A DNA stretch of 31,547 nt from a virus: positions 1 through 31,547 of IMG/VR virus record IMGVR_UViG_3300033146_001455, one strand, 5' to 3'. Numbering within the stretch: the first letter of the stretch is position 1; every line of letters starts with the position of its first letter. Shown piece after piece: positions 904-29,309 of the stretch. The notes under the pieces are model-generated. The model was not told the DNA's origin, did not search any database, and saw nothing but the letters and a program-made list of their open reading frames with translations. The position numbers were made by a program, and so were the translations under genes.

Positions 904-1848
904 TCAAGCCACGCTATCCCACATGAGGATACTGGCGTTATCCTCTGCTGTCCTGATTAATCCGTAACCTCCGCAATAGTACCAAGCCACGCCCTTTGAC
1001 CGCCCGAAATCCGTCGGAATTTTGCCCCTTATTTCTTCCGGGGTGACGATCCCTTCCGCTACCGTGTCATCACCAAAAAAGTACATCCAATCTGACTTCG
1101 CCTGACCCCATGTGCCATTTTGACCTTTGGCAATGTTGGTCTGTTCGGTGAACCTCATGTTCTGGTACCTGCCACGCTCACCAGACGCAATCTTTTTGTA
1201 CCCCTCAGTGGTGTACTGATTGATTGATTCAAGATCGGAATCAAGGGTTTCAAAAGTTGAAGGCCACGCGATGCACATGTAATCGTCTTCAACAAACGGA
1301 AGGATATTTCTCTCCTTCATTGTGTTGACAATCGCCTTTACATGCCCTTTCCGGAAAGCAACGGTATTCGTGGTGGTACATGCACCATTAGTGGTCAGAG
1401 TTACGGCGGTGGTGCTGGTGCCCCCGGTAGCTGCTACTCGCAACGGAGTTAACGCAAACTGAGCTTCTGCCAAGGTATCAAAGGCTTTTGCAGAGTCATG
1501 TTTCAGCGCCTTGTTGATAATCTTGGTCAAAGGGATTTCTGACATGTCGTTCAAAAAACCAGTGTACGGTACTGAATTTCCGGCCTCTCCAACAGTCAGG
1601 GTGCCCTGGGTGATTGTAAAATTCGTTTCGGGCATCGTGTTCGTTTCCACCAGCGCCCCGCCTTGCGAAGCAACGTTGGAAATGATGTCCCATGTGAATG
1701 TTTGGCCCGCATGCTTACCTATGGCGTTCTGAACTTCACAGAACTGCCGGAATTTCGCAAGCGGCTGATTTGCCGTTCTCAATTTTTTATCAAGATTCTT
1801 TGCGCTGAGATACCCGCCTAAAGAATTGACTGCCCAAAGTTGTCCCAT
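904..1848 (-). CDS. Major capsid protein (N4-gp56-like)
   Basis: 314 residues, the coat subunit of the icosahedral head. The start at 1848 (MGQLWAVNSLGG) has AGAGGGAA upstream; an in-frame codon at 1896 lacks a ribosome site. The sequence fits the N4-gp56-type coat family as I know it: an N-terminal arm, a GQTFTWDIISN strand, the ETNTMPETNFTITQGTLTV region, the helical SEIPLTKIINKALKHDSAKA segment (HK97-fold spine helix), and a C-terminal half with aromatic-rich strands such as DWMYFFGDDTV. It follows the scaffold gene directly (13-base gap), which is the standard position. Family recognition is from memory of the pattern; coat identity is well supported by gene order. Confidence 0.82.
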   Translation of the reverse strand: MGQLWAVNSLGGYLSAKNLDKKLRTANQPLAKFRQFCEVQNAIGKHAGQTFTWDIISNVASQGGALVETNTMPETNFTITQGTLTVGEAGNSVPYTGFLNDMSEIPLTKIINKALKHDSAKAFDTLAEAQFALTPLRVAATGGTSTTAVTLTTNGACTTTNTVAFRKGHVKAIVNTMKERNILPFVEDDYMCIAWPSTFETLDSDLESINQYTTEGYKKIASGERGRYQNMRFTEQTNIAKGQNGTWGQAKSDWMYFFGDDTVAEGIVTPEEIRGKIPTDFGRSKGVAWYYCGGYGLIRTAEDNASILMWDSVA

Positions 1849-1861
1849 ATTATTCCCTCTC

Positions 1862-2842
1862 TTAACGGCCCGGCCTGCTTGCTCCGAGTTCTGCAATTAT
1901 GTCGCTTGCAGACTGGCCCTTTGTTTTTGAATCCACATTGCCTTTGACGGCCCCCGCCGCCTGCACATTGTCGATGGTCTTCTTTTTGTTTTTTTTTCCT
2001 GCAAAGGGGTCTTCCGTTTTCCCGCCTGCAAGCCCCGTGACCCATTCCCGAACCTCGGACCCCGCTTTTTCGTAGGTTTCCCAAGTGTTCGGCTCTTTGG
2101 CTTTCAATCGCTCGTTTACCTTTTCTATGACCATGTTTCTTAGGTAGGGGTCATCGGTCAAATCATTGAACCCGCCTTTGTCAACTGGGCTGTTGAACTT
2201 ATGAGCAATCTTTTCAGAGTTATTGGTGTCCTCCACTGCTTTTTTGGCAATCTCCTGAATTTTCTCGGGGGTGACAGCATCTTCCCGGCTGCGTCCCTGG
2301 CTATTCAATTGTTCAATTGCCTGTGCTGCTTCTTCTGCTGTGCCGTACTGCATCGCCTCTGCCATCTCTTTTGGCGTCATCAGCTCAGGTGTTTCGTCTG
2401 GCAGGTCCGTCTCGGCCCCTGATTCGGAAGTGACGGCTTGCTCTTTGGCCTCTTTTAGCAGACGTGTTGCCTCTTCCAGGCGCTTATCCGCTGCTGACTC
2501 TTTCTGATATGTTCTTTTCCCCGCGTCCATTACATCAGATAGCAGGACCTCTTTTTCCTCCCCATCTACTATGACCTTGACCATCTCTGGTTCTTCTTCC
2601 GGGGGTTTTTCTTCCGGTTCTTCTTCCGGTTTTTCTCCGGCATCGTCCCCAGGGAGGTCGTCACCGTCCCCAGGATCGTCAACGCCCATGTCTTCTGCAT
2701 ATTTACCAGTGGCTTCGTCATTGTTTTCAATGATAGATTCCATCATGGCTGTGCGGTCCGTCAAAAGAGATGGCGCTTCTTCTTCGTGCTGTTTTCCGTC
2801 TTCTGATACGCCTGCTGTGGTGGCATCAAATTCTTTGTCCAT
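1862..2842 (-). CDS. Scaffolding protein
   Basis: 326 residues, strongly acidic N-terminal half with long Glu/Pro/Asp runs (residues roughly 50-95), a coiled-coil-prone middle (KRLEEATRLLKEAKEQAV), and a basic C-terminal tail (AGKKNKKKTIDN and PGR end). That profile, plus its place between the portal block and the coat gene, is typical of internal scaffolds that bind coat subunits through a basic helix and leave or are removed before packaging. Start ATG at 2842 has AAGGGG nine bases upstream; the codon before it at 2848 is a TTG and less likely. No protease gene is visible, so the scaffold probably exits intact, as in P22. Sequence family not identified; role inferred. Confidence 0.75.
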   Translation of the reverse strand: MDKEFDATTAGVSEDGKQHEEEAPSLLTDRTAMMESIIENNDEATGKYAEDMGVDDPGDGDDLPGDDAGEKPEEEPEEKPPEEEPEMVKVIVDGEEKEVLLSDVMDAGKRTYQKESAADKRLEEATRLLKEAKEQAVTSESGAETDLPDETPELMTPKEMAEAMQYGTAEEAAQAIEQLNSQGRSREDAVTPEKIQEIAKKAVEDTNNSEKIAHKFNSPVDKGGFNDLTDDPYLRNMVIEKVNERLKAKEPNTWETYEKAGSEVREWVTGLAGGKTEDPFAGKKNKKKTIDNVQAAGAVKGNVDSKTKGQSASDIIAELGASRPGR

Positions 2843-2844
2843 TT

Positions 2845-3147
2845 TCAAACCCCTTCATTATCTGACATTATTTCTAATTGCTGCATGGCTTGGCGTCCGT
2901 TCTGGATAGCCTCGTTTAGCCATTGCAACGCATTTTCCGCTGATTTTAATTCGAGCTGGATTTCTTCTATCCGCTCTTTGTTTCCGGCGCTGGTAACTTT
3001 TAAATTGTCAATGGACTGCATGACGACTTCCATTGCCCTGGCCTTTACATACCTGCCCGGGTCCGTATGAAAGAAGGCGTCGCATTTTTCACCGAGTATT
3101 ATTTCTGCCCGGATTGTTTCCAGGTCGTCTTGGTGTAGTGGGTTCAT
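2845..3147 (-). CDS. Small coiled-coil protein of head module
   Basis: 100 residues. The start overlaps the portal stop codon in an ATGA, so its translation is probably coupled to the portal. The N-terminal third carries the string MNPLHQDDLETIRAEIILGE and then FFHTDPGRYVK. From about residue 45 a heptad-like helix runs to the end (ERIEEIQLELKSAENALQWL), so a coiled coil is likely. Proteins of this size and shape sit between portal and scaffold in several podoviruses, but no function is established. Its stop overlaps the upstream side of the scaffold ribosome site. I do not recognise a family. Confidence 0.6.
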   Translation of the reverse strand: MNPLHQDDLETIRAEIILGEKCDAFFHTDPGRYVKARAMEVVMQSIDNLKVTSAGNKERIEEIQLELKSAENALQWLNEAIQNGRQAMQQLEIMSDNEGV

Positions 3148-6113
3148 TTTGGTTCCATAAGTCTAATCGCATTCTTGAGTTGTATTTCGTTATCGTCCAT
3201 ACCATCTCCCCAATGGTCTCCCCCAATCGTTATAATATCCCGTTTCCCGCCTTCGTCGTACATTTTCACATTTGAAAGGACGTCTTTAGCTGTCGAATCT
3301 TTAGTTATTTCTATGGCCGATGTAAAACCTAATTTTTTAAAATACTCTGGATCATCAGCGTACCATTCAAAAGACTCTGGAACGTTATCTCTTGGCGCGA
3401 CCTTTTCGTTTTGTGCCCGGATGCCAAAAGACTCAGAATCTTCTAAATATGAATATTTGTCTTGAAGGCTATCGGGCATATCATCGAAATCCCCATGCTT
3501 GTCCCTTGCTTTAAGATAATCTATTATTTTTTGGATGTCTTTTTCTGTGTTAGATGTCGAAACTCTTTTATCACTATTCCCCGGGAGCGACCGCAAAACA
3601 GAAGAATCAACCCCACGAGCCCCAGACCCAAAACCAGCACCAACGGCCCAATCCGCGAGAAGCATAGTAATATCAGCAGACTCTTTCGTAGTCAACGGCT
3701 GCCCGCTTATACCCTTGGCTCCTGCTTTCAACCCTGCTTTCGTGGGGTCAATAAACATCTCTCTCAGCCTACCACCCATAGCGCTCTGGATATTATCATA
3801 ATCAATGGGGGTTCCTGGCTTAGCCATCAAGCTCTCTATAAACCCAGGCTCCATCACAGACGTTTTAAACATCTTCTGGTACAGACCTTTCACATTCTCC
3901 ATCAAGGTAGGCGTGGGCTCCAGGGTGGGTGTGCTGGTATCTGTGTTAAAATTTGCAGTTGTATCGTGGGGGTCAGTGGTCGACCAATCAAAAGCGCTAC
4001 CCGGAGATGATAATTGATCATTCGGGATAACTGATCCGTCGCTCTGAGGCACTATTACTTCCGGCCCCTCTTCCCCGACAATATACGGCTGTCCGGCTTG
4101 TACTGGCCCACCGCCTGCCCTGCCTGGAATGCCTTGCCCCATGCCAAGCCCTTTGCCCTTCCCTGGCCCGGTCCCAAGATCATCTTGGATATCCATGTGT
4201 TTAATGATCAATTTATTCTCAAGCTCTTTATCCAACCGTTCGTCCTCGGCTTCCTGCTTGATCAATTCAAGCTCTTTTTTAGCTTCCCGATCCGCTTCGT
4301 TGTCTGCAAGCTCGGCCTGGAGCTTCTGAATAATCTGCCCCATTTCCTGCATTTTAGCCATGACCGGAGCCATTTTGGGGTCTTCCTGATCGATAAGAAA
4401 TCTTGCCCCGTCCTTATACCCCAACCTGCCGAATATTTCCTTGACGACTTCCTGCACATTCAAGCCCTGGGGCGGAGCTGCCATCAACTCCCGAACTTTT
4501 GTAATTGCCAGAGAAAAGCTGTTGAGTTTTTGCAGGGGGTCAGTGGCTCCCATGCCGACGTTGACTGTCAGTGTCAATTCCTGGTTGAGTAATTCGTCCG
4601 TAACCTCATCAATTCCGTATTTCTGCATGAGCTTTGCTTTCTGAGCTGCAATAGCCAGCACCACTGTATCCGTCTCATAATGCTGTTCCAGTTTTATGAG
4701 CTGGCGCATAACCGGCTCCACCCAGGTTTCCGCAAATGTTTTTATCAGATACTCGGTGAGGGCATTTACTCCGCCCTTGAACATCTGCATACCGCCAACC
4801 GTTTCGTTGAGTTTTCTGTTAGCCTGCACAGTGGCCTGGGAAAAGGTGCCTACCAGATCGTCAAAATCCATGTTGAGCCGGTCTTGTTCCATATAACTTG
4901 ACCCTGTAACGTCAGCAAACTGACGTTCCATGATGTCATCATGAGCATCAACAGTAGTGGCTCCGCCCGGCACGTTACGCATAAGATTCTGGATATCAAC
5001 GTTCCGGCCCCGGAGCACAGTGTACCTTTTGTTCATCACTAATTTTACATTGTCAGCCCGTTGGTTTGCGTTGTCGTTTAGCTCTGACTGTACGGGGATA
5101 CCCAGCCCAATTGGAGACGTCGGATATAATTTATGAGTCTCAATCACGGCAATGCCCATAACAAAAGGACGGTCTCCCGTGAAATATTGTTTTTCGATGG
5201 GTTCTGGGTCAGTCAATATATGCTCAGTCCCGAGCGTGAAATACACCATATCATTACCATCAATGCGGATAAAATTATGGTGCACCCAAACAACGTCAAA
5301 GGCGTTCAGAGGCTTAGCTTGATTGTCCTGCTCTGTTTTGTCCTCTCGGTTGCCCTCCCTGGTTGCTTTGGTTGTGTCGAAAACGAGTTTTGAAGCTGAT
5401 CTGATTGCCGAATCTTCAAGTTTTTTCCATTTTGGCTGGCCGGTTTTCGGGTCTGTCTGGACCATTTTAGCTTTGACGTCCTGGACGTACATGGGGATGA
5501 GTCTAATCACATACGGACTGGTGCCTATCGGGTCTGTCCAGCTCGCTGCTGGGTGTATGCGGAGTTGTTCCACGGGCATCAATTCAATGCACGGTTGATC
5601 TTTCAGAATCTTTGTTGCTGGGATCGTTTGCTCTTTCTGCTCGCCGGTGTCTTGATCAAGATATGGGATTTTATGATATTCGGTCTTTTCTTCATATTCC
5701 CAGGCTTGATAGCTGCACACCACGCCGATCACGTTCGAGTCTTGGAAAGCCCCGATACACGTAAGGAACCAAGGTATTGTCTTTGTGAGTCGGTATTGAA
5801 GCAACTCCTTCATCACATCCGCGCTGGCCTGTTGCTGTTCGTCTCCTGGGTTTTGAGCGTCGATTGAAACCACATCCATATTCGCAAAAAAGGCAGCGCT
5901 GGCGGCGGCTTCGTTGGCCCTGATAGCAGACCGGCTTTTCGGCCTGAATATTTTAGACCGGTACCGAAAAGACGCTTTATTATATTTTGAGCCTGCCCGG
6001 TGGGTGCTCTGAAAATGGTTGAGGCAATCTTCCCAGTTCCGGCGGTAATTGTTGTCTACAAAAGATGTCGACTGCTCATACGCCTGGGCTGCTAATTTTA
6101 GATAATCAGTCAT
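3144..6113 (-). CDS. Portal protein with long C-terminal extension
   Basis: 989 residues, against about 700-760 for podovirus portals. Residues 1 to about 650 form the portal: they hold the expected helical wing (NEAAASAAFFANMDVVSI), the region DSNVIGVVCSYQAWEYEE, and a coiled-coil end (ELELIKQEAEDERLDKELEN). Portals form a dodecameric ring at the packaging vertex. About residues 650-735 are a Gly/Pro-rich linker that contains a motif usually seen at the end of tape-measure proteins (GGPVQAGQPYIVGEEGPEV, near 667-685). Residues 735-989 are an extra globular region with no assignment, ending in a pattern SFEWYADDP, TSAIEI, TIGGDHWGDGMDDNEIQL. The gene overlaps its upstream neighbour by one base (TAATG). 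Portal identity is secure by order and size of the core; the tail domain is open. Confidence 0.85.
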   Translation of the reverse strand: MTDYLKLAAQAYEQSTSFVDNNYRRNWEDCLNHFQSTHRAGSKYNKASFRYRSKIFRPKSRSAIRANEAAASAAFFANMDVVSIDAQNPGDEQQQASADVMKELLQYRLTKTIPWFLTCIGAFQDSNVIGVVCSYQAWEYEEKTEYHKIPYLDQDTGEQKEQTIPATKILKDQPCIELMPVEQLRIHPAASWTDPIGTSPYVIRLIPMYVQDVKAKMVQTDPKTGQPKWKKLEDSAIRSASKLVFDTTKATREGNREDKTEQDNQAKPLNAFDVVWVHHNFIRIDGNDMVYFTLGTEHILTDPEPIEKQYFTGDRPFVMGIAVIETHKLYPTSPIGLGIPVQSELNDNANQRADNVKLVMNKRYTVLRGRNVDIQNLMRNVPGGATTVDAHDDIMERQFADVTGSSYMEQDRLNMDFDDLVGTFSQATVQANRKLNETVGGMQMFKGGVNALTEYLIKTFAETWVEPVMRQLIKLEQHYETDTVVLAIAAQKAKLMQKYGIDEVTDELLNQELTLTVNVGMGATDPLQKLNSFSLAITKVRELMAAPPQGLNVQEVVKEIFGRLGYKDGARFLIDQEDPKMAPVMAKMQEMGQIIQKLQAELADNEADREAKKELELIKQEAEDERLDKELENKLIIKHMDIQDDLGTGPGKGKGLGMGQGIPGRAGGGPVQAGQPYIVGEEGPEVIVPQSDGSVIPNDQLSSPGSAFDWSTTDPHDTTANFNTDTSTPTLEPTPTLMENVKGLYQKMFKTSVMEPGFIESLMAKPGTPIDYDNIQSAMGGRLREMFIDPTKAGLKAGAKGISGQPLTTKESADITMLLADWAVGAGFGSGARGVDSSVLRSLPGNSDKRVSTSNTEKDIQKIIDYLKARDKHGDFDDMPDSLQDKYSYLEDSESFGIRAQNEKVAPRDNVPESFEWYADDPEYFKKLGFTSAIEITKDSTAKDVLSNVKMYDEGGKRDIITIGGDHWGDGMDDNEIQLKNAIRLMEPK

Positions 6114-6645: not shown

Positions 6646-8298
6646 TCAATAATCTCCATCAAATTCAGGGGTTAAATCACGCTCATCAATTATTTGCGGT
6701 GGTGCCATGTCTAAATCATAAAACCGTGACATAGCGTCAAAGAAGTCTTTCTGCGTAGTCGCCGGGAAAAACATATACTCGTTGGACATGAACCAGTCTA
6801 CCAGATCATATACTCTGCCGTCCTGATTTTTCTGTTTTATTGGCTTGGCGATTAGATGCGCCTTGCCCTGTGCCCGGGCTTTGGCCTGCGCTGATGTTTC
6901 ATCGCCCCGGTATGGATAAAACCACCTCCAATTTTGATGATCTGGCACCAGCCGCCTGATGCGGTCATCTTTGGAAGTGGTATCGTCACGGGTCCAGGAA
7001 ACCTCTTGGATGTCAAAAGACCTCCTCTCAATGCGCATCATCTCTTTATAATGCTCAATGTCCGCTTGCATGCCATATTTTTCATACCCGACTTTTACCA
7101 CCTGGATGCCGGGTTGCCGAAGCCATTTATTCCTGAGTCCCTTCAACAGCTTCCACTTTTCAGGGAGAGCCATCTTGTGGCAGGCCCCATCCAGGAGATA
7201 TTTGTTTCTGGCTGCATCCAGACCCACGACCGCAAAGGCGGTATTTGATGTGCCTTTTTTTTTGGAGTTTGCCGGGTCAACGAGGATAGCAACATTAAGA
7301 GTCTGAGGCCGTAGTTCATACCGTCTGGCCCACTCTGGCTTAAATTCCTGCTCAGATCCAGCCAATGGGTTTTGAAGTTGTTGGCATGCAATAGTAAAAG
7401 CTGATGATTCTTTTTTTTTATGCGCCCATTTTGCCGGTGTAAGAAAGACCGACTCCCCGTCTGGGGTACCGTCGTCGGTGGCAGGGTGGATGCGGGGAGT
7501 CACAACGCCACGGTCAAGAATGGTACGGTAGGTATCAGCGAATGAATATCGGGTCCCGATATGCCATGTCCGAGCTGGCGTGTCCTCTCCCGGCCTGTTG
7601 GCTGCCAAATTCCTGGACATCTCCCAGGCTGCCGTGGTTTTTGCTATCATCTCACCGGTGGACACGCTTTCCACGGTCACTACATCATCATAGATCATTA
7701 ACTCAAAGTGCTTGCTCGTGGGCTGCCCATCCACGAGCCCCCAGGCTTCCACCGTCCTTTCTTTGGGATTATTGTCCCGCATACAAACGAGGCCCGTATC
7801 TAATGACCAGGAAGGAGAGTCTTTCTTAGGATTTTCAAAGAACGTATTCGGGTAGAGCTTGGGCAGGGAGGTGTTAAGTTCAAGCTCCTGTTTTATTTGG
7901 AATAAAAAGCCTTTGGCAATACCTTTTGTGTGGGAGAAAATACCGATTGTTATTTCTTTGTTTTTTGCAATTTCCTGAATGATTCCGGCGAATGTAATAA
8001 TTGTACTTTTATAATGCTCACGAGCCCATAGATCAATCATGCCATCCGGGCAGGCTTCGACCTCCCGACAGCGCTCATAGAGCCATGGGTGCATAGCGTC
8101 ATAGCGTTTTAGGATGACTGACAACATCACATATCTGTCACGAGCTCCCAGGTAGCCCCACTCCGCATCGCCCATGCCGGGGTCATTAAGCAATTGTCGG
8201 ATACACCTCTGCGCTTGGGCATAATTGCAAACCCGCAACCACTCCGCCACCTGGTTTATTGCCCCATCATTGATATGGACGGGTTGTGGCTTACTCAT
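6646..8298 (-). CDS. terL: Terminase large subunit
   Basis: 550 residues: the packaging motor ATPase plus nuclease. The Walker A site is a deviant form, WAREHYKST (about residues 91-99), known in a group of podovirus terminases in place of the usual G-x-G-K-S. Walker B is seen as ELMIYDDVV. The C-terminal RNase H-type nuclease starts at NVAILVDPANSKKKGTSN, whose Asp is the first metal ligand, and GYEKYGMQADIEHYKE follows. Start ATG at 8298 lies inside the end of terS (8-base overlap), with AAGAGG upstream; the TTG two codons earlier is less likely. Length matches the family. The enzyme docks on the portal ring and cuts concatemeric DNA. Confidence 0.92.
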   Translation of the reverse strand: MSKPQPVHINDGAINQVAEWLRVCNYAQAQRCIRQLLNDPGMGDAEWGYLGARDRYVMLSVILKRYDAMHPWLYERCREVEACPDGMIDLWAREHYKSTIITFAGIIQEIAKNKEITIGIFSHTKGIAKGFLFQIKQELELNTSLPKLYPNTFFENPKKDSPSWSLDTGLVCMRDNNPKERTVEAWGLVDGQPTSKHFELMIYDDVVTVESVSTGEMIAKTTAAWEMSRNLAANRPGEDTPARTWHIGTRYSFADTYRTILDRGVVTPRIHPATDDGTPDGESVFLTPAKWAHKKKESSAFTIACQQLQNPLAGSEQEFKPEWARRYELRPQTLNVAILVDPANSKKKGTSNTAFAVVGLDAARNKYLLDGACHKMALPEKWKLLKGLRNKWLRQPGIQVVKVGYEKYGMQADIEHYKEMMRIERRSFDIQEVSWTRDDTTSKDDRIRRLVPDHQNWRWFYPYRGDETSAQAKARAQGKAHLIAKPIKQKNQDGRVYDLVDWFMSNEYMFFPATTQKDFFDAMSRFYDLDMAPPQIIDERDLTPEFDGDY

Positions 8299-8758
8299 TG
8301 TCAATTGCCTCTTTTATCGCGTCCAGGTCAAGAGATACCTTTGCCTCAACAGAAATAGGGCCTTGATCTTTCCCGGTATGTTCAAACTTTTTAGGGGCGT
8401 ACAAGTCTTTCACTTTGAGCGCCATGTCCAGAGTTCTGCGCTGGGTCTCGATAGCTGCAACCTCACGCTGATCAGTGACCACCCCCTCATGCTGAAAAAA
8501 TTTGGTCTCTGTGGCTTCCATGAGCGAAAGTAACTTTTTCTTAAGCACAGCATCAGATAAACCAACCTCATCCATCCAGTCATTTAGCTTGTCGGAGAGC
8601 TTCTTAGAGTTCTGATAGCCTATCTGGGCAAGGGATAATTCATTTTTGGTTTTATAACCAGCAGCCCTGGCGGCCTCTATGTTAGACAAAAATGTCCTGG
8701 GGCAGGCATCGTTAGTGTAGTGATAAAACCACAAGCTTATTCTGGTTTGGTTACCCAC
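8291..8758 (-). CDS. terS: Terminase small subunit
   Basis: 155 residues, first gene of the packaging operon. It recognises the packaging site on phage DNA and recruits TerL. The start is a GTG at 8758 (reads GTGGGTAAC) with a G-rich box (TTGGGGG) just upstream; there is no nearby ATG. The N-terminal part has a helix-turn-helix-like stretch (CPRTFLSNIEAARAAGYK, then ELSLAQIGYQNSKKL), and the middle is helical (EVGLSDAVLKKKLLSLMEATE), as in the oligomerisation region of small terminases. Its overlap with terL is the classic arrangement. Family exact type not determined. Confidence 0.85.
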   Translation of the reverse strand: MGNQTRISLWFYHYTNDACPRTFLSNIEAARAAGYKTKNELSLAQIGYQNSKKLSDKLNDWMDEVGLSDAVLKKKLLSLMEATETKFFQHEGVVTDQREVAAIETQRRTLDMALKVKDLYAPKKFEHTGKDQGPISVEAKVSLDLDAIKEAIDNE

Positions 8759-21683: not shown

Positions 21684-23639
21684 TTATAAATAATCTAATT
21701 GGATTATGGGAGGGTAAATATATAAATAAGCCCCTGCCGATCTTTTAGCCTGCACAGTAATCCAAAAATGATAATTATTTTCAATCTCATAATTTATATC
21801 TGAGACAATATGAGTCCCCGCACCAGTAAAAACATGATCAATGCCAATTTGTGTTTCCGATGTAGTATTGAAAGTCCCTTTATAAAACTGTATTTTAGTA
21901 TTGGCCGCTGAATCATCAGTATACACATAAATAGTAAAGGTATGTATTACAGACCCAGCAGGTTGCTCTATTGGGAATTGCCAGATATCATAAAGACCGT
22001 CGGCAGATACATTGCTACTTCTGGTTATTCCATTCCATGTCATTGTACTATCGGGCGATCGGCCATAAAAAGCCCCTGATAATACAAGAGATTGTTTTAT
22101 AGATTTTATACCTCTAAAAAAACCTGTCCCTCTTATTATTCTGCTTACGCCTGACCCAAAGGAAGAACTTATTGCCCAGCCATTAGTGGTTCTGGTATTG
22201 AAGACATTCGATCGGGAATCGAAACTCTGAAAATTTATCCCGGTACCTCTATCAACTCCAGTGGGATGATTTTCAAGTACAAAATCATAAAATGAATTAT
22301 CATAATTATTCATTGATACGGTTTCTTTAATTCCGTAGGCATCTGCCAAGTCAGAATGTGTATCAATCATCCCTTTATAAAAAGCATTACGTCTGCACCC
22401 ATTATTCAGGATCAATCCATAATCGGTTGTTTTTATGCGCAAACCATAAAAGGCGTTATCATAGATATCATAAGTTGATACACCATCAAAAAAAACTCCA
22501 TCCCCAACACTCTCGTTTTCTATTCGGATATTATAAAAAAAACTTGCTACCATATTATTTATATGTAAAGACCAATTTTTTGCGCTTACTATATCTATAT
22601 TGCTACAGGTAAGTTTTTGTGCATAACCAATAAAAAGTCCGTCTGCTCTGGCATTACAATTAAGGGCTAAATCTATTATAATGTTGTTGTGTACATTATC
22701 GACAATATCGCCAGCAAAAGATAGGATGTTTTCCCCTAAAGGGAAGCCGCCTGATGCTTTTATTTCCGTAGCGCTCCCCATCCCGGATATTTTTTGATTA
22801 TCGCTATTAATAAGTAGAGGCAAATTTGTCATATATATCTTGGCATGCAAGAGCACAGATAAGCTGTTGTCAAGGGCTTTTTGTAATGCGTAACTATCAT
22901 CAGTATACCCGTCGCCTGTCGCCCCCCACATCTCTGGATAAGCTAACTGCAAGCCTGTTAAGGTGATAGACCCCCCCCATACCTGATACGGTACGGGTTG
23001 AAAAATAGAATCAATAGTCAAAGATCCAGCCCCGTCAATAATCGCCCCGCGATCAGTCTTCAGCGTGATATTGTCCGGTATTGTTTCGCTCGTAGTAAGC
23101 GTATAAGTGGTCGTAGTAGATCCACTATTATGCAATAAATGAATCGTTGCGGCCTTCCCAGCAGCTTGGTCAATGTAATATTTTATGGTGTTGTTATTGC
23201 CGGTTACTCCCTGGTCTACTGCCCGATAATCAGGATAAACATCCGTAGGGTCGGGGGGTTCTGCAAAGCCATTAATATAATCAATAGGGAAATGGTCTTG
23301 TTGTGCGCCGGTCGCAGATTTTAAATTTATTTTTGTCGTAGATAGCAGATAAATAATAGCCTGCCCGTTAGCGTCCAAAACCACGGGCCACGGGTTGGGG
23401 ATAGTACAGGCACGGTCTGTATAAGTATCTTTGGGGGTGGTGGTACCTGGCAGGTACGCGTACACCAGCCCCCCAGAAATGGGGATACCCTCAGCGTCTA
23501 CCGCTTGGAAGACTGGATTGTTTAGTATTAATCCGGTTGATGTGGCATGAGCCGAGGAAGCCATGAAAGCCATAGACGCGGCAATAACGATTATTATTGC
23601 CAGAATTGATATGAAATTTGATTTGTTTGTTTTTTTCAT
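21684..23639 (-). CDS. Tailspike / tail fibre, pectate-lyase-like beta helix, with signal peptide
   Basis: 651 residues. An N-terminal signal peptide-like segment (1-32): MKKTNKSNF, a hydrophobic run (IISILAIIIVIAA) and AHA at 30-32 before TST. Next a common phage spike N-domain (about 33-125: NNPVFQAVDAEG, then GTTTPKDTYTDRACT, VVLDANGQAI). From about 237 (WGATGDGYTDDSYALQKALD) the sequence fits a pectate lyase superfamily beta helix with repeated Asn/Asp-rich rungs to about 540; the end is a beta-rich C-terminal domain. Such spikes bind and often cut surface polysaccharide. Start shares ATGA with the upstream gene. The signal peptide is odd for a spike, and a lone C8 run lies at 22971-22978. 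Confidence 0.82.
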   Translation of the reverse strand: MKKTNKSNFISILAIIIVIAASMAFMASSAHATSTGLILNNPVFQAVDAEGIPISGGLVYAYLPGTTTPKDTYTDRACTIPNPWPVVLDANGQAIIYLLSTTKINLKSATGAQQDHFPIDYINGFAEPPDPTDVYPDYRAVDQGVTGNNNTIKYYIDQAAGKAATIHLLHNSGSTTTTYTLTTSETIPDNITLKTDRGAIIDGAGSLTIDSIFQPVPYQVWGGSITLTGLQLAYPEMWGATGDGYTDDSYALQKALDNSLSVLLHAKIYMTNLPLLINSDNQKISGMGSATEIKASGGFPLGENILSFAGDIVDNVHNNIIIDLALNCNARADGLFIGYAQKLTCSNIDIVSAKNWSLHINNMVASFFYNIRIENESVGDGVFFDGVSTYDIYDNAFYGLRIKTTDYGLILNNGCRRNAFYKGMIDTHSDLADAYGIKETVSMNNYDNSFYDFVLENHPTGVDRGTGINFQSFDSRSNVFNTRTTNGWAISSSFGSGVSRIIRGTGFFRGIKSIKQSLVLSGAFYGRSPDSTMTWNGITRSSNVSADGLYDIWQFPIEQPAGSVIHTFTIYVYTDDSAANTKIQFYKGTFNTTSETQIGIDHVFTGAGTHIVSDINYEIENNYHFWITVQAKRSAGAYLYIYPPIIQLDYL

Positions 23640-28188: not shown

Positions 28189-28848
28189 TTATTGATTATA
28201 TATGTATGCCCCGGTCATAAGCGCATTACTTATATTGTTAGCACCCCCAGCAAAGGCATTGGCTTGATTGATATAGCCACTGGCCCTGGCGTCCCCGGCG
28301 TTCTCCACCCCCATAGAAAGCGCATTCCCCACCCCTTGACCCGTAGCGATGGCATTTTGTGCGTTCTGACTGGCGGTTGTTTGCCCCACCCCAGAAAGCG
28401 ATTGTAAAGGAGTCAAACTCTGATAATACCTTGAAAGAAAATTATCATATTTAGTGCTGGCGTAATCTTGAGCATACCGAGACAAGGCCTTTTGCGTGGC
28501 CCCTGACCGTAACCTGCCAGTTGCGGAAGCCGCCGCCAACGTAGGACTTTCGACAAATTCTTTATATCCAAATTGATACCCAGGGTCTTGTTGCGGATCA
28601 AACTGCCCCGGCCCCGCCGATACTTTGCCTTGAAGCTGGGTTAAAGCATTCTCCCCGGCCTCACGCCAGGGGGCGGTATCCTCTCTGGACTGGTAATACA
28701 TTTCTTTCTGAGTATCTGCTGATATCTGTGCCGCTTCCAGGCTTGCGTCCGCTTGGGTGTCCGCTGCTTTGCTGGCTGCTTTGCTGCTTTTGCTTGACGC
28801 AACACTCCCGATCACCGCCCCCCCCACAACTGCTGCTCCCACTGCCAT
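28189..28848 (-). CDS. Internal ejection protein (P22 gp7-like / DNA transfer protein family)
   Basis: 219 residues; GAGGGG before the ATG at 28848. N-terminus hydrophobic Ala/Gly/Val (AVGAAVVGGAVIGSVASS), then APWREAGENALTQL, DPGYQFGYKEF, SGATQKALSRYAQDYAS, and NFLSRYYQSLTPLQSLSGVG. This string of motifs is very common in podoviral DNA transfer or ejection proteins (P22 gp7 class) annotated in many phages. The membrane-prone N-terminus fits a part that enters the host envelope. Best supported of the three ejection genes. Confidence 0.75.
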   Translation of the reverse strand: MAVGAAVVGGAVIGSVASSKSSKAASKAADTQADASLEAAQISADTQKEMYYQSREDTAPWREAGENALTQLQGKVSAGPGQFDPQQDPGYQFGYKEFVESPTLAAASATGRLRSGATQKALSRYAQDYASTKYDNFLSRYYQSLTPLQSLSGVGQTTASQNAQNAIATGQGVGNALSMGVENAGDARASGYINQANAFAGGANNISNALMTGAYIYNQ

Positions 28849-28865: not shown

Positions 28866-29309
28866 TTATTTTTTTGCGAGTCCTGTAATCACCTGATCGA
28901 ACAATTTTCCATTTTTAAAAAAACTTTTAGCCAAAATTCCCTCTATTTTAAAGCCGCATTTTATAGCAAGATTCACGGCTGAACCACAATATGACGGGGT
29001 TAACCCCATTATTTTTTTGCATTTAGTATTTTTAAACATCCAATCTATTGCCTCCCTCCCCGCGACCCATGATGGCTTTCTTTCAAGCCCCTTCCTGCAT
29101 TGCATGTGTCCTTGATACAGAATTGTAGTCATTGGGTGAAAGATAAATAGGCTACATGGATCTGGAGACAGGAAATAAACAGACTCGTTGTTTAGCAAAA
29201 TTTCGGAATTAATAATCCCATTATTAAAGTCATCAGTAATAAACGGATAAATAGACGGATCGTTTAAAAAATCGTTGGTAAATTTGAGGTCTGATATTGT
29301 CAATCTCAT
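28866..29309 (-). CDS. P22 gp14-like GNAT-fold protein (DUF2824 type)
   Basis: 147 residues, overlapping the previous stop in ATGA. The core (YFLSPDPCSLFIFHPMTTI, SWVAGREAIDWMFKNTKC, KIMGLTPSYCGSAVNLAIKC, GFKIEGILAKSFFKNG) follows the GNAT order of strands and helices, and the last block is like the acetyltransferase C-terminal strands. In P22 the gene before the ejection proteins, 14, is a small protein of this type (DUF2824) of unclear role. It could be an inactive GNAT that helps head assembly. Assigned by fold pattern and synteny. Confidence 0.65.
   Translation of the reverse strand: MRLTISDLKFTNDFLNDPSIYPFITDDFNNGIINSEILLNNESVYFLSPDPCSLFIFHPMTTILYQGHMQCRKGLERKPSWVAGREAIDWMFKNTKCKKIMGLTPSYCGSAVNLAIKCGFKIEGILAKSFFKNGKLFDQVITGLAKK

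What the first reader, a model, noticed from the sequence alone, without database searches (positions are those of the whole stretch)
3144..4115. Portal fused to a tape-measure-like linker and an unassigned C-terminal domain
The portal is 989 residues, about 250-300 more than related portals. After the coiled-coil end of the core, a motif normally at the end of tape-measure proteins appears (GGPVQAGQPYIVGEEGPEV), then a TPTLEPTPTL linker and a 250-residue domain ending in SFEWYADDP, TSAIEI and GGDHWGDGMDDNEIQL. From memory this tail resembles C-terminal regions of some polyvalent or MuF-like phage proteins, sometimes ADP-ribosyltransferase-like, but the R, STS, ExE triad is not seen. A domain inside the head on every portal subunit could be ejected or act on DNA entry.
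Basis: partly seen in the sequence, partly recalled or inferred. Interest (0 to 1): 0.62.

Follow-up and report, generated by a model that had tools for sequence, protein, structure and literature searches.

The report
Portal protein with swappable tail module
This phage's DNA-entry ring protein carries an extra tail, joined by a short motif known from tail 'tape-measure' proteins, and related phages show that this motif is a joint at which different tail pieces are exchanged; the piece on this phage has no known relative, so its job is unproven.

Summary
The portal (window 3144-6113, minus) is 989 aa: an SU10-type core with a long barrel helix (579-645), a disordered Gly-rich stretch, a tape-measure-type motif (668-699), a TP linker (728-737) and an orphan tail (738-989). 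Its nearest relatives stop at about 647-697 aa. Of 74 portals of this family with a complete end, 12 (the window included) carry a recognisable module after the barrel, in three separate gains; only the window has this motif there. The same motif, with other modules, sits at the same place on unrelated P22-type portals. In three P22 portals 74-80% identical to one another, similarity runs to the end of the motif and stops: one continues into an EISIG module (a stand-alone gene elsewhere), one into a different module, one into a short end. In other virion proteins the motif precedes Pesticin, Glucosaminidase, Peptidase_M23 or DUF7178 domains. So the motif is a recurrent joint for exchangeable C-terminal modules; the window is a new case with an orphan module. 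The toxin/ART idea is unsupported (no ExE, no match). Most likely the module is a head-interior accessory of DNA ejection. Portal-effector fusions are published; this motif as the joint appears new.

The parts
4179..6113 (-). SU10-type portal core including the barrel, residues 1-645
   Evidence: PF23899 E 2e-34, residues 162-601; Foldseek to SU10, Pa223, A4 and N4 portals; 539 relatives in viral contigs
4179..4379 (-). predicted long barrel helix, residues 579-645
   Evidence: AlphaFold2 with 56-row alignment, helix 579-645
4113..4178 (-). Gly-rich flexible stretch, residues 646-667
   Evidence: predicted disordered, pLDDT about 30
4017..4112 (-). tape-measure-type joint motif GGPVQAGQPYIVGEEGPEVIVPQSDGSVIPND, residues 668-699
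   Evidence: PHROG 1538 E 2e-9; same motif on P22-type portals
3903..4016 (-). low-complexity linker ending TPTLEPTPTL, residues 700-737
   Evidence: predicted disordered; sequence
3147..3902 (-). orphan C-terminal module, residues 738-989; no recognised family
   Evidence: no match; absent from the nearest portals; only residues about 861-890 modelled confidently
2845..3147 (-). small gene after the portal, same position in relatives; start overlaps the portal stop
   Evidence: relatives
904..1896 (-). major capsid protein (context)
   Evidence: PHROG 1357 E 3e-13
6646..8304 (-). terminase large subunit (context)
   Evidence: PHROG 38 E 5e-37
28189..28848 (-). P22 gp7-like ejection protein candidate (context, weak)
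   Evidence: PF25688 E 0.008, below cut-off

Best explanation
The extension is an exchangeable C-terminal module added to the portal barrel through a portable joint. Shown: (1) an SU10-type portal core, then a tape-measure-type motif, a linker and an orphan module; (2) the addition is lineage-specific; (3) the same motif holds different C-terminal modules on unrelated P22-type portals, and the modules swap at the end of the motif; (4) one of those modules also exists as a stand-alone gene; (5) in other virion proteins the motif is followed by peptidoglycan hydrolases. Inferred: the portal ring (12 subunits in SU10) presents the tail at the barrel mouth inside the head, on a flexible tether of about 90 residues, where it acts as a head-interior accessory of genome ejection, by holding or guiding ejection proteins or the leading DNA end, or as an envelope-penetration module. 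The modular-joint part is strong; the ejection role is the most likely reading, at about 0.5 on its own.
For: Core and fold. Extension absent in the nearest relatives and gained three separate times in the SU10-type family, a count that well-supported branches force. P22-type portals with the motif: L172/L173/L176 (= L159-161), L174, L232/L294, L178/L179 (PF16510 E 1e-144, 4e-174, 6e-179, and 6e-61 for the L179 fragment). L174, L232 and L178/L179 are 74-80% identical up to the end of the motif and then differ entirely. EISIG module stand-alone as MEP301 gp34, directly after the portal gene, and as Acibel007 gp49; these and the L161 and L232 copies align at E 1e-17 to 1e-32. Motif before Pesticin E 2e-38 and 6e-42, Glucosaminidase E 2e-15, Peptidase_M23 E 6e-28 and DUF7178 E 5e-11. 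The last 129 codons have lower GC (0.393) than any of 143 windows of the packaging genes (minimum 0.437). SU10 barrel inside the head with DNA-end or ejection-protein density: PMC9509320.
Against: The module has no detectable homologue, and most of it is modelled at low confidence, so it could be poorly folded. No direct evidence that it is in the virion, contacts ejection proteins or has activity. In most tape-measure proteins only 50-79 residues follow the motif, so the motif has a tail role that does not need a module. L178/L179 keep the motif with only 21 residues after it, so the motif may have its own function. Low GC also occurs elsewhere in this genome (45 of 517 windows).
Confidence: 0.6

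Rival explanations
1. The tail is a host-directed effector carried in the head, like published portal- or MuF-linked enzymes, cut from the portal and sent into the cell with the DNA.
For: Portal fusions to PBECR, 2H, InPase and Nudix domains, read as injected effectors, are published (PMC5512222, PMC9503650). The module is lineage-specific and differs in composition from the packaging genes, as effectors often do.
Against: No effector family, structure or sequence match. No ExE, HExxH, HxH or Cys. Portals stay in the capsid, so release needs a protease; no dedicated search for one was made in the window. Twelve tethered copies are an odd dose for an effector.
Confidence: 0.2
2. The tail is a structural or regulatory extension inside the head, acting in portal incorporation, scaffold contact or sensing of the packaged DNA, with no role in ejection.
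For: Every portal subunit would carry it; it follows the barrel; relatives have tails of many lengths.
Against: The nearest relatives manage without it, and the exchangeability of such modules in P22-type portals argues against an assembly function shared by all.
Confidence: 0.15
3. It is a neutral or decaying fusion left by loss of a stop codon between the portal and a former neighbouring gene.
For: Single sequence, no homologues, mostly low model confidence. The EISIG module shows that neighbours of the portal gene can be fused to it. The orphan part begins with Met738.
Against: About 250 codons stay open with codon usage typical of the genome; the ATGA overlap with the next gene is kept; independent phages fix similar fusions on the same motif.
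Confidence: 0.05

Closest known systems
SU10-type portal (PF23899; SU10 gp6, PDB 7z44)
   Same: core sequence and fold, barrel at the C-terminal side
   Different: SU10 and most relatives end after the barrel; here a motif, linker and orphan module follow
Siphovirus tape-measure C-terminal motif (PHROG 1538, 5062, 8892, 10574)
   Same: GGPVxAGxPYxVGExGPExxVPxxxGxVIPN
   Different: there usually 50-79 residues from the end of a tail protein; here on a portal and followed by 290 residues
P22-type portals with the same joint (L172, L174, L232, L178)
   Same: motif directly after the C-terminal coil, then a variable module or a short end
   Different: other portal family; modules are EISIG (L172, L232), YDY..PNHITFS (L174) or none (L178), not the window's
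Portal- and MuF-linked effectors of polyvalent type (PMC5512222, PMC9503650, PMC5576092)
   Same: variable C-terminal domain joined to a head protein
   Different: no recognised enzyme or toxin domain and no MuF domain here; the words 'tape' or 'tape measure' do not occur in those papers
Motif-muramidase gene of SU10-type relatives (L047/L048, gene before the portal)
   Same: motif, then a C-terminal module, in the same virion gene cluster
   Different: separate gene with a Pesticin domain; those portals have no extension

Membership tests
SU10-type portal (PF23899) | profile match above the curated cut-off | tested here: met
   119.2 bits against 30
SU10-type portal (PF23899) | gene order terminase, small gene, portal, small gene, scaffold, capsid | tested here: met
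SU10-type portal (PF23899) | portal fold | tested here: met
   Foldseek E 6e-20 to 7z44
SU10-type portal (PF23899) | dodecamer with the barrel inside the head | not testable with these tools
   by homology only
Tape-measure protein | C-terminal motif | tested here: met
Tape-measure protein | long coiled tail protein without a portal domain | tested here: not met
   the protein is the portal
MuF polymorphic toxin | MuF domain plus toxin domain | tested here: not met
   no such match
Portal-effector fusion (polyvalent type) | recognised effector domain after the portal | tested here: not met
   no Pfam, PHROG or PDB match
ADP-ribosyltransferase | R, STS, ExE residues | tested here: not met
   STS at 852 but no ExE in 738-989
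Joint motif plus exchangeable C-terminal module on portals | GExGPExIVPxxDGxVIPN after the portal coil, unrelated sequence after it | tested here: met
EISIG module | conserved EISIG...EIP..VP...GKSPF pattern | tested here: not met
   window tail lacks it by inspection

The most novel reading that the evidence does not exclude
The GPE motif is a general loading joint of virions: one short element used by tape-measure, portal and internal proteins of unrelated phages to hang exchangeable C-terminal tools, often cell-wall hydrolases, on the DNA-delivery axis, perhaps by a shared docking or cleavage step; the window's tail would be a new tool of this set.
Probability: 0.25. Interest if true: 0.72.

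Novelty: new variant of a known kind. Interest (0 to 1): 0.5.

Why it matters
Portals are usually treated as fixed rings. Here a portal carries a lineage-specific module on a joint shared with tape-measure proteins and with unrelated portals, and the swap point can be read to within a few residues. That makes a defined question testable: what does the GPE motif do, and does it mark parts delivered or exposed during DNA ejection? The motif also gives a search handle for unannotated head-interior modules.

Tried and rejected
Homologues of the 252-aa module: whole in viral contigs, phages (only two hits at E about 4) and plasmids; residues about 807-854 alone in viral contigs; whole and part in genome contigs; 45 genomes of relatives (motif only). 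All negative; the contig scans need exact 8-residue matches, so distant relatives could be missed. Pfam and PHROG at high E-value gave chance matches only. PDB by sequence: none for the module. Single-sequence AlphaFold2 of 644-989: pLDDT 36, unusable, so no fold search of the module alone; the search with the full model reflects the core. Rejected: ART (no ExE), MuF (no domain), assembly error (one open frame, overlapping next gene; not excluded by reads). L175 and L177 look like SU10-type portals with the motif, but L175 is just under the Pfam cut-off (29.0 against 30) and misplaced in the tree, and L177 is a C-terminal fragment; neither was counted. The paper search for VGEEGPE found nothing.

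Full report
What is there. The window is a whole 31,547-base virus record. ORF 3144-6113 (minus) encodes a 989-aa portal: PF23899 SU10_portal at E 2e-34 over residues 162-601, between terminase (PHROG 38, E 5e-37) and capsid (PHROG 1357, E 3e-13). With 56 aligned rows AlphaFold2 gives a confident core, one long helix 579-645, a disordered stretch 647-738 and a mostly low-confidence tail in which only about 861-890 is well modelled. Foldseek puts the core with solved portals of Pa223, SU10, cyanophage A4 and N4. In SU10 the barrel belongs to the portal complex embedded in the capsid, and density inside it is read as the DNA end or ejection proteins (PMC9509320).

The motif. Residues 668-699 match the C-terminal motif of tape-measure proteins (PHROG 1538 E 2e-9, PHROG 5062 E 3e-7). 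Among ORFs that carry it in the best viral hits, 68 of 71 with a closed end have 50-79 residues after it; the other three, with 158, are portals. In the window 290 residues follow.

The extension is a local gain. The best 80 relatives were fetched. Of 74 portals with a complete end, the window included, 62 have no recognisable module, ten carry a second tape-measure-type motif (GPGTGTSDS..GEYVIP; PHROG 3547 E 5e-11 in L064), one (L077) carries another module, and one, the window, carries the GPE motif. On a tree of the cores these are three separate gains, as many as well-supported branches force. The window lies in a supported set of 18 rows, 15 of which have no extension and two of which could not be scored.

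The same joint on unrelated portals. A DNA pattern for GPEVIVPxxDG, then a looser one, found the motif on P22-type portals (PF16510): L172/L173/L176, which are the contigs of L159-161 (E 1e-144), L174 (E 4e-174), L232/L294 (E 6e-179) and L178/L179 (E 6e-61 for the L179 fragment). L174, L232 and L178/L179 are 74-80% identical and the alignments end at or just past the end of the motif. After it come a YDY..PNHITFS module in L174, an EISIG module in L232, and 21 residues in L178/L179. L172, about 40% identical to L232, has the EISIG module too. That module is a stand-alone gene in Methylophilales phage MEP301 (gp34, directly after the head-tail connector gene) and in Acinetobacter phage Acibel007 (gp49); these and the L161 and L232 copies align at E 1e-17 to 1e-32, and the stand-alone start MDYGLR falls at the end of the motif (VIPN-YGLR in L232). 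This is gene fusion at a fixed point.

The joint on other virion proteins. In SU10-type relatives L047 and L048 a gene between terminase and portal carries the motif and then a Pesticin muramidase domain (PF16754, E 2e-38 and 6e-42). Elsewhere the motif precedes Glucosaminidase (L233, E 2e-15), Peptidase_M23 (L263, E 6e-28) or DUF7178 (L180, E 5e-11). Three of these four recognised modules act on peptidoglycan; that is a hint, not proof, for the window.

The window's own module. Residues 738-989 have no match in Pfam, PHROGs, PDB, phages, plasmids or the contig scans. The last 129 codons are poorer in GC than any of 143 windows of the packaging genes, though such values occur elsewhere in the genome. 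Codon usage is typical. An ADP-ribosyltransferase is not supported: there is no ExE.

Interpretation. The best account is an exchangeable module on a portal barrel, attached through a recurrent joint. Shown: the architecture, the local gain, the shared joint, the swap point in P22-type portals and the stand-alone relative of another module. Inferred: position inside the head, 12 copies, and a role in ejection. An effector is possible, since portal-effector fusions are published (PMC5512222, PMC9503650), but it would need release from the ring and has no sequence support. What seems new is the tape-measure-type joint on portals; I did not find it described, but only open-access papers were searched.

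Noticed in passing
L060, L064, L058, L081, L066, L065, L063, L043, L055, L036 (portal C-termini): SU10-type portals with C-terminal tails holding a GPGTGTSDSI..GEYVIPA motif of tape-measure type; in the longest ones a hydrophobic LDVLPGTG..GLIPG segment, by eye like pre-toxin linkers.
   Followed up: partly
L047 2050-3669, L048 1725-3656: Gene between terminase and portal with the GPE motif and a Pesticin-type muramidase domain; probable virion lysozyme.
   Followed up: partly
L172, L232, L175; MEP301 gp34; Acibel007 gp49: A conserved module of about 90 aa (EISIG...EIP..VP...GKSPF) of unknown function, stand-alone or fused to portals.
   Followed up: partly
L180 / L171 (minus-strand ORFs of 1176 and over 814 aa): Large head-interior-like protein with the GPE motif near the middle and, in L180, a DUF7178 domain after it.
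   Followed up: partly
21684-23639 (-): Tail-spike-like protein that begins with what looks by eye like a Sec signal peptide, unusual for a virion protein.
   Followed up: no
28866-29309 (-): Small gene inside the tail/ejection cluster that looks by eye like a GNAT acetyltransferase.
   Followed up: no
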